Source of the DNA: Candidatus Jorgensenbacteria bacterium RIFCSPLOWO2_01_FULL_45_25b
GTDB lineage: Bacteria; Patescibacteriota; Minisyncoccia; UBA6257; GWB1-50-10
Assembly (NCBI GenBank): GCA_001781035.1
Contig: MFKK01000008.1
Location: 1-46,372 of the forward strand
DNA length: 46,372 bases
Direction: 5' to 3'
The stretch's first letter is position 1. The number at the start of each line of letters is the position of its first letter. Below the pieces are notes generated by a model. That model worked only from the letters and a program-made list of their open reading frames with translations. It did not search any database and was not told the DNA's origin. Below, in pieces: positions 38,042-38,638 of the stretch. Both the position numbers and the translations under genes were made by a program.

Positions 38042-38638
38042 ATGCGTAACACACATCACTTTCATTTGAAGAAGTTCGTAGATTCGGATTGTTTTGTAGT
38101 TTCGGGGGCATCAGGGTTTACCCCGTTAGAGAGCGTTGTTGCTCACAATGGGAACAAAAGTCATGCAAGAGAGCGCGGGGCTTTGTCCTCTCTAACGGGG
38201 TTTACGCTTATAGAGGTTTGCATTACGGTCGGGCTTGTTGCTCTTCTTTCGGTTTCTTTGTTTTTTATTGTGAGTCCCGCAAAAAGATTCGCGGACGCGC
38301 GCAATCAGAAACGTTTATCGGATGTGAATGCCGTATTGAATGCCGTTAGTCAGAATATCGGAGATTATAAGGGTACGTTTTTTTGTCCTTCAGGACCTAT
38401 TCCGATCGCAACCTCTACGCGGATGGCTTCCGGGGCGGGGAGTTATAATATTTTTCCCTGTATTTATCCCGCGTATATCCAGCAGATTCCTTTTGACCCT
38501 CAAGTAATTGGAGCCCACTTTACGAGTATTTCCGACTACGACCTCGGGTATTTCATTGTTTTGAATACCGCGAATAATCGGGTTACTGTTTCCGCCCCAT
38601 TCGCGGAGGACGGGGCGAATATATTCGCGACTCGATAA
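38042..38638 (+). CDS. Type IV prepilin-like protein with repeat-expanded leader
   Basis: TGFTLIEVCITVGLVALLSVSLFFIVSPAKRFADARNQKRLSDVNAVLNAV. Confidence 0.82.
   Translation: MRNTHHFHLKKFVDSDCFVVSGASGFTPLESVVAHNGNKSHARERGALSSLTGFTLIEVCITVGLVALLSVSLFFIVSPAKRFADARNQKRLSDVNAVLNAVSQNIGDYKGTFFCPSGPIPIATSTRMASGAGSYNIFPCIYPAYIQQIPFDPQVIGAHFTSISDYDLGYFIVLNTANNRVTVSAPFAEDGANIFATR
38121..38200. repeat. Third copy of the 80-bp palindrome-ended prepilin-leader repeat
   Basis: ccccgttagagagcgttgttgctcacaatgggaacaaaagtcatgcaagagagcgcggggctttgtcctctctaacgggg. Confidence 0.95.

What the first reader, a model, noticed from the sequence alone, without database searches (positions are those of the whole stretch)
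38114..38205. Same 80-bp element in a second prepilin with an 8-bp duplicated target inside the GFT codons
A third near-identical copy (two mismatches) interrupts another prepilin at the same motif. gggtttac occurs at 38114-38121 and again at 38198-38205, so the left end reads GFTPLE and the right end TGFTLIE. This looks like an insertion duplicating the GFT codons, suggesting a palindromic element that targets the conserved prepilin peptidase site while preserving frame and cleavage.
Basis: partly seen in the sequence, partly recalled or inferred. Interest (0 to 1): 0.8.

Follow-up and report, generated by a model that had tools for sequence, protein, structure and literature searches.

The report
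Tiny nuclease-linked mobile hairpin in pilin genes
The 80-bp insert in this pilin gene is one copy of a very small jumping DNA element, found across many bacterial phyla, that slips into genes without breaking them, and it appears to be moved by a matching 0.28-kb element whose only gene is a small DNA-cutting enzyme (GIY-YIG nuclease), a partnership we found described nowhere.

Summary
An 80-bp palindromic element (38121-38200) interrupts a prepilin at its GFT codons, in frame; two further copies lie in tandem at 34942-35105. The "8-bp duplication" is really 4 bp (TTTA, 38117-38120 and 38201-38204); the other matching letters are the element's own ends.

It is not prepilin-specific. In 242 copies the ends form a 13-bp inverted repeat (core CCCGTTAGA) whose non-core positions vary but stay complementary. 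Insertions add 4 bp, usually TNNA. Copies occur in Patescibacteria, Omnitrophota, Planctomycetota, Desulfobacterota, Nitrospirota and others, in EF-G, GlyRS and intergenic DNA. Empty EF-G sites in relatives show a 69-nt insert (65+4). GFT codons (TTYA-C) fit the target and the inserted end rebuilds TGFT, so tolerance, not targeting, explains the recurrence.

The likely mobiliser is a GIY-YIG nuclease: 263-316-bp elements with the same ends encode only one small GIY-YIG protein, and this genome has an intact copy. A GIY-YIG clade of 19 carries these ends, sister clades other ends. Presence co-occurs (p=1e-7); Y1 and rve transposases do not. Mobility itself is untested. No description was found in open-access literature.

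The parts
38042..38638 (+). Interrupted prepilin gene (198 aa), reads GFTPLE...SLTGFTLIE
   Evidence: open frame; uninterrupted homologues P0002, P0003, P0006
38117..38120 (.). Left 4-bp flank TTTA
38121..38200 (.). 80-bp element; terminal 13-bp inverted repeat CCCCGTTAGAGAG / CTCTCTAACGGGG
38201..38204 (.). Right 4-bp flank TTTA (duplicate of the left one)
34902..35522 (+). Second interrupted prepilin gene (206 aa), two tandem copies, ends in SLTGFTLIE
   Evidence: N_methyl motif after the insert
34942..35021 (.). Tandem copy 1 (left flank AAAG, no intact left GFT)
35022..35025 (.). 4-bp junction CTCA between the tandem copies
   Evidence: the same junction is seen in the third prepilin locus on contig C21
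35026..35105 (.). Tandem copy 2, identical to copy 1
35106..35109 (.). Right 4-bp flank TTTA of the tandem pair
37065..37601 (+). Uninterrupted prepilin paralogue with native GGGTTTAC at 37128-37135 (empty-type site)

Best explanation
The insert is a non-autonomous (MITE-like) copy of a mobile element family with 13-bp terminal inverted repeats (core CCCGTTAGA) that adds 4 bp (mostly TNNA) at each insertion. The autonomous form is a 263-316-bp element with the same ends whose only gene is a small GIY-YIG endonuclease of about 85 aa; an intact one lies elsewhere in this genome. Proposed mechanism: the nuclease recognises the terminal repeat and cuts 3' of TNNA on both strands, at the element and at the target, leaving 4-nt overhangs; the element is joined to the target by host ligation or repair, leaving TNNA on both sides. 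Prepilin GFT codons are a good target and the element end rebuilds the GFT cleavage motif in frame, so these copies survive selection. Shown: ends, 4-bp addition, empty sites, spread, in-frame bias, GIY-YIG genes inside the same ends, co-occurrence, end type following nuclease phylogeny. Inferred: that the nuclease drives movement, the overhang chemistry, and that the interrupted pilins work.
For: 4-bp register 42/80 versus 5.3 expected. Exact 13-bp covarying terminal stem. Empty versus filled EF-G in one genus, 69 nt = 65+4. 42 of 53 genic copies in frame versus 68 of 150 non-genic with length divisible by 3, p=2e-5. 13 prepilin insertions in several phyla, all in frame at GFT. GIY-YIG genes enclosed by the same ends, with identical 4-bp flanks for both copies of this genome. 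Clade of 19 GIY-YIG domains linked to these ends, other clades to other ends; 7 label changes versus 21.6 shuffled. Same arrangement in Desulfobacterota, Nitrospinota, Planctomycetota and Omnitrophota; control windows 4 of 5322. Co-occurrence p=1.2e-7, against none for Y1 (p=0.79) or rve (p=1.0) transposases. Catalytic-motif positions conserved.
Against: GIY-YIG nucleases are known to cut, not to join; an additional joining activity is needed and not identified. About half of the small GIY-YIG genes examined have no recognised ends. Two element-bearing genomes lack a GIY-YIG match at the threshold. Many copies have non-identical 4-bp flanks (76 of 140), partly age and nested copies, partly an unexplained class. 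Short copies do not share inner sequence with the GIY-YIG copies, so derivation by internal deletion is not shown. No mobility was observed.
Confidence: 0.78

Rival explanations
1. An unidentified classical transposase (DDE or Y1) recognises the 13-bp ends in trans; the GIY-YIG gene is only a passenger or homing nuclease that settled in some copies.
For: Terminal inverted repeats with a short target duplication are the usual mark of DDE transposases; GIY-YIG nucleases have no known joining activity; a Y1 (RAYT-like) gene lies in the window.
Against: No association with Y1 (10/25 versus 16/35) or rve (9/33 versus 75/261). No longer copy with a transposase among 251 loci. End type follows GIY-YIG phylogeny. 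The same design recurs with unrelated ends around other GIY-YIG genes. Other DDE families were not tested.
Confidence: 0.15
2. The element specifically targets the prepilin peptidase motif.
For: 13 independent-looking insertions at exactly the GFT codons in three phyla; three prepilins of this genome are hit.
Against: 95% of copies lie elsewhere, at many TNNA sequences. GFT codons match the general target preference, and the junction rebuilds the motif, so retention explains the excess. Another conserved gene, EF-G, is hit twice at nearly the same place in one genus.
Confidence: 0.04
3. The prepilin inserts are kept because they help: a longer leader or hairpin in the mRNA regulates pilin processing or expression.
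For: Recurrent retention, tandem arrays, exchange between loci; stable hairpin.
Against: Retention in unrelated genes and intergenic DNA and the loss of most genic insertions fit neutral tolerance. An uninterrupted paralogue sits in the same operon. No Rfam match. Not exclusive of the best explanation.
Confidence: 0.08
4. The shared inserts spread among prepilins by gene duplication or gene conversion only, without insertion.
For: The three prepilin loci of this genome hold near-identical elements; the tandem junction CTCA is shared by two of them; strain variant P0004 carries a variant seen at the other locus; a 57-bp leader is repeated upstream of two prepilins. Exchange between copies probably does occur.
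Against: Left flanks differ (GGG TTT versus GGA TTT) with TTTA on each side. Prepilins of other phyla carry unrelated inner sequences. Non-prepilin copies and empty EF-G sites require insertion.
Confidence: 0.02

Closest known systems
Rickettsia palindromic elements (RPE; Ogata et al. 2000, 2002, as reviewed in PMC10969869)
   Same: Short palindromic elements inserted in frame in many unrelated protein genes.
   Different: RPEs are about 150 bp in ten families confined to Rickettsia and relatives; here 65-100 bp, one end type across many phyla, a defined 4-bp flank and a candidate autonomous partner.
[quoted passage not shown]
   Same: Short, no gene, terminal inverted repeats, short target duplication, a longer gene-bearing element with the same ends.
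   Different: MITEs known to us derive from classical DDE or related insertion sequences; the partner here encodes only a GIY-YIG nuclease. Inner sequences are almost all different between copies.
REP/REPIN sequences with RAYT (Y1) transposases
   Same: Small hairpins mobilised in trans by a single-gene partner; target tetranucleotide next to the hairpin.
   Different: The flanking 4-mer varies and is usually repeated on both sides; no association with Y1 genes.
GIY-YIG homing endonuclease genes, including those in CPR rRNA genes (PMC11270868)
   Same: Small GIY-YIG gene as the only gene of an insertion. That survey found GIY-YIG insertions that are not introns and look unlike homing, and many short gene-less insertions.
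   Different: Homing uses one conserved site and homologous repair; here the sites vary, with 13-bp inverted ends and 4 added bp, and gene-less copies share the ends.
Penelope-like retroelements (from general knowledge)
   Same: A GIY-YIG endonuclease serves the mobility of an element.
   Different: They carry a reverse transcriptase and no short inverted-repeat ends; here the nuclease is the only gene.

Membership tests
MITE (non-autonomous inverted-repeat element) | Terminal inverted repeats | tested here: met
   exact 13-bp complementarity, dropping to chance at position 14
MITE (non-autonomous inverted-repeat element) | Target-site duplication of fixed length | tested here: met
   4 bp, 42/80 versus 5.3 expected; net addition of 4 in EF-G. 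Caveat: a class with non-identical flanks
MITE (non-autonomous inverted-repeat element) | An autonomous element with the same ends | tested here: inconclusive
   GIY-YIG elements share ends and flanks, but their mobility is not demonstrated
Rickettsia palindromic elements | In-frame insertion into many unrelated protein genes | tested here: met
   35 of 53 genic copies open throughout
Rickettsia palindromic elements | Sequence relationship to an RPE family | not tested
   no RPE sequences were compared
REP/REPIN-RAYT | Association with a Y1 transposase | tested here: not met
   10/25 element-bearing versus 16/35 other genomes
REP/REPIN-RAYT | Fixed tetranucleotide next to the hairpin and no duplication | tested here: not met
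   flanks vary and are duplicated
GIY-YIG nuclease (PF01541) | Domain match and catalytic motif | tested here: met
   E=2e-14; UPF0213 1zg2 E=5e-10; Y, YTG, R, H, E positions conserved in 19 sequences
GIY-YIG homing endonuclease gene | Insertion at one conserved homing site | tested here: not met
   insertions of this family are at varied TNNA sites
Classical insertion sequence | Element carries a DDE or Y1 transposase gene | tested here: not met
   gene-bearing copies carry only a GIY-YIG ORF
Structured RNA family | Match to an Rfam family | tested here: not met
   no gathering-level match in 9 loci

The most novel reading that the evidence does not exclude
A self-mobilising element of about 0.28 kb, whose only gene is a GIY-YIG nuclease, moves like a restriction fragment: staggered cuts 3' of TNNA at element and target, 4-nt sticky ends joined by host ligase, so that the flanking 4 bp can come from donor or target. 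It feeds a cloud of hairpin passengers translated inside conserved genes across many phyla.
Probability: 0.4. Interest if true: 0.93.

Novelty: categorically new. Interest (0 to 1): 0.86.

Why it matters
If the GIY-YIG gene is the mobiliser, this would be among the smallest autonomous mobile elements known, and a class with no classical transposase. It would help explain why small GIY-YIG genes are so common in candidate-phyla genomes, and why odd peptides (NPVR...SNG, TPLE...LTG) interrupt conserved proteins such as prepilins, EF-G and glycyl-tRNA synthetase there. It makes testable how in-frame selfish DNA is tolerated in streamlined genomes, and gives annotators a marker for recognising these insertions.

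Tried and rejected
Targeting of prepilins: rejected, 95% of copies are elsewhere. An 8-bp duplication: rejected, only 4 bp is register-specific. A fixed right end TTTAC, as in IS605-like elements: rejected, flanks vary. Y1/RAYT transposase: no association. rve-type transposase: no association. Long copies with a transposase: apparent 0.5-4.4 kb pairs were ends of separate short elements or unsupported. Rfam: nothing. Chromosomal inversion as the cause of TTNA/TNAA flanks: rejected, the mirror class is absent (0 versus 17). Blunt insertion into TTCA^TAAA: rejected for GlyRS because it would shift the frame. First GIY-YIG tree: discarded, because loci of minus-strand matches had been read in the wrong orientation; redone. 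First EF-G alignment: redone for the same reason. Ten literature searches gave no description of these ends, of GFTPLE leaders, or of a bacterial GIY-YIG element with inverted repeats; subscription papers, preprints and ISfinder could not be searched.

Full report
WHAT IS THERE. The window holds a type IV pilus gene cluster: T2SSE ATPase 32015-33754, T2SSF 33784-34848, then prepilins. The prepilin 38042-38638 is interrupted by an 80-bp palindromic element at 38121-38200. Two identical copies, differing from it at two positions, lie in tandem in the prepilin 34902-35522. The prepilin 37065-37601 is uninterrupted, with a native GGGTTTAC. Homologues of the 38042 prepilin without the insert exist (P0002, P0003, P0006), as do homologues with unrelated inserts at the same motif (P0005, P0007).

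EXTENT OF THE FAMILY. This genome has at least 12 copies by exact pattern, in a third prepilin and in non-prepilin loci. The pattern CCCGTTAGA-N45..74-TCTAACGGG occurs in 25 of 60 relatives and in 33 of 294 genomes of the phylum; the reversed control pattern gives none in the rows shown. Thirteen viral-contig stretches also carry it. That the phylum is Patescibacteria is inferred from a sampled genome whose contig equals a Candidatus Uhrbacteria record in length and in the element found.

ANATOMY. In 80 copies from this genome and its relatives, the flanks share a 4-bp direct repeat in 42 cases (5.3 expected), with little or no excess for 3 or 5 bp; its consensus is TNNA. The native bases around it prefer R-TNNA-Y. 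In 212 inner-sequence clusters, terminal complementarity is 13 bp: positions 2-10 are fixed by the search pattern, positions 1, 11, 12 and 13 vary but pair in 83-94% (42-56% expected), and position 14 drops to chance. Inner sequences are almost unrelated between copies; GC-rich ones tend to fold into further hairpins, AT-rich ones hardly do.

INSERTION IS SHOWN BY EMPTY SITES. In EF-G, genome G308 has a 69-nt in-frame insert (65-bp element plus 4 bp). G232 of the same genus and G172 and G261 of the same family are empty. G270, again the same genus, has its own different insert at nearly the same spot. In GlyRS, G034 and G018 carry inserts where most relatives read V-K-P or I-K-P.

READING FRAME. 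Only 26% of copies lie in genes, against 79% of random positions in the same loci, so most genic insertions have been lost. Of 53 genic copies, 42 add a multiple of three (68 of 150 non-genic copies do; p=2e-5) and 35 are open throughout. The two stop-free frames of the ends give PVR...SNG and PLE...LTG. At a GFT codon triplet the left junction reads GFTPLE and the right junction rebuilds LTGFT for every Gly and Phe codon tried. All 13 prepilin insertions found (Patescibacteria, Omnitrophota, Phycisphaerae) are of this kind. Tolerance explains the site; dedicated targeting is not needed.

THE CANDIDATE MOBILISER. A 277-bp version (L249:6927-7203) encloses one ORF, a small GIY-YIG nuclease. In this genome both full-length small GIY-YIG genes lie in such elements: contig C37, 285 bp, flanks TGTA/TGTA, intact; contig C19, 277 bp, flanks TGAT/TGAT, with an in-frame stop. 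Of the 30 closest relatives in the phylum, 14 were found enclosed by an inverted repeat within two mismatches of this core. In a tree of 71 GIY-YIG domains, 19 sequences form one clade (support 96/88), 17 of them with CCCGTTAGA ends by the strict criterion. Of the other two, L329 has such ends further out and L311 has several such ends around the gene, as if another copy had inserted. Other clades have CCYGTAGA or CCTGTTAAA ends, and two sequences with CCCGTTAGA ends lie beside the latter. Labels need 7 changes versus 21.6 when shuffled. Outside the phylum the same ends enclose GIY-YIG genes in Desulfobacterota, Nitrospinota and Planctomycetota, and a one-base variant, compensated on both arms, does so in Omnitrophota. 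Two Omnitrophota genes have entirely different 13/13 ends (CCCCGCCCTTCCT) with TGAA on both sides. The criterion of at least 12 paired bases plus an identical 4-bp flank is met in 4 of 5322 control windows. Elements go with a GIY-YIG relative (31 of 33 element-bearing genomes versus 125 of 261 others, p=1.2e-7, computed), not with Y1 or rve transposases. The protein is PF01541 (E=2e-14), nearest solved structure the UPF0213 protein 1zg2, with catalytic-motif positions conserved.

HOW IT MAY WORK. Shown: ends, 4 added bp, linkage to the nuclease. Inferred: the nuclease cuts 3' of TNNA at the ends and at the target, giving 4-nt overhangs whose outer T and A pair, and host enzymes join them. Two observations favour sticky ends over plain copying of the target. 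First, 17 of 76 non-identical flank pairs read TTNA on the left and TNAA on the right, and none the mirror image. Second, in GlyRS of G034 and EF-G of G270 the right flank (TAAA, CAAG) fits the native relatives while the left TTCA is extra, as if carried from a donor; the true pre-insertion sequences are not known. The outermost base pair of the element also correlates with the native base next to the target, which remains unexplained. None of this was tested biochemically.

KNOWN OR NEW. The short copies behave like Rickettsia palindromic elements and MITEs. A 2024 survey of CPR rRNA insertions noted that GIY-YIG insertions there are not introns and look unlike homing, and that many short gene-less insertions exist, without linking the two (PMC11270868). 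Ten searches of open papers found no description of the ends, of GFTPLE leaders, or of bacterial GIY-YIG elements with inverted repeats. Absence there is not proof; preprints, subscription papers and ISfinder were out of reach. I call the class new on condition that the nuclease is the mobiliser; otherwise it is a new, unusually widespread MITE family.

LIMITS. Copies were found by exact 9-bp ends, so diverged copies are missed and positions 2-10 carry no pairing information. The GTDB sample required TTYA on the right flank and is biased for flank statistics. Genic status rests on ORF length. Genome counts mix copies of different age. Function of the interrupted prepilins is predicted only.

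Noticed in passing
38672-38709 and 39315-39352: Two identical perfect 38-bp palindromes (GTGCCTCAAACTTTACCGTACGGTAAAGTTTGAGGCAC) flank a gene for a PaaX_M (Cas2-like domain) protein at 38773-39291; bidirectional terminators or the ends of another mobile unit.
   Followed up: partly
20321-21016 (-) with 20298-20322, 20835-20860, 21034-21087, 31524-31569: A RAYT-like Y1 transposase gene with its own palindromes (TTACGAGTTACGATCTCGTAAG and variants) around it and 10 kb away: a separate REP-type system.
   Followed up: partly
34841-34897 and 37009-37065: A 57-bp leader, 96% identical, stands upstream of two different prepilin genes.
   Followed up: no
39383-39612: Tandem array of a 17-bp T-rich unit (TTTTTGAATCTTGCTTG) downstream of the PaaX_M gene.
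   Followed up: no
17 loci listed, e.g. L072, L075, L076, L077: A class of copies has TTNA on the left and TNAA on the right instead of identical 4-mers; the mirror class is absent. Possibly donor-derived flanks.
   Followed up: partly
L364, L365, L351, L343, L344, L392, L403, L405: GIY-YIG genes enclosed by other inverted-repeat types (CCYGTAGA, CCTGTTAAA, CCCCGCCCTTCCT, CCCTTGACACTTT), several with TNNA flanks: probably sister families of the same design.
   Followed up: partly
L120-L132: Thirteen stretches of IMG/VR viral contigs carry the element; host and location in viral genes not examined.
   Followed up: no
L004, L005 (contig C21) and 34942-35105: Tandem arrays with the same CTCA junction in two prepilin loci, and strain variant P0004 mixing their sequences, suggest exchange between loci.
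   Followed up: partly
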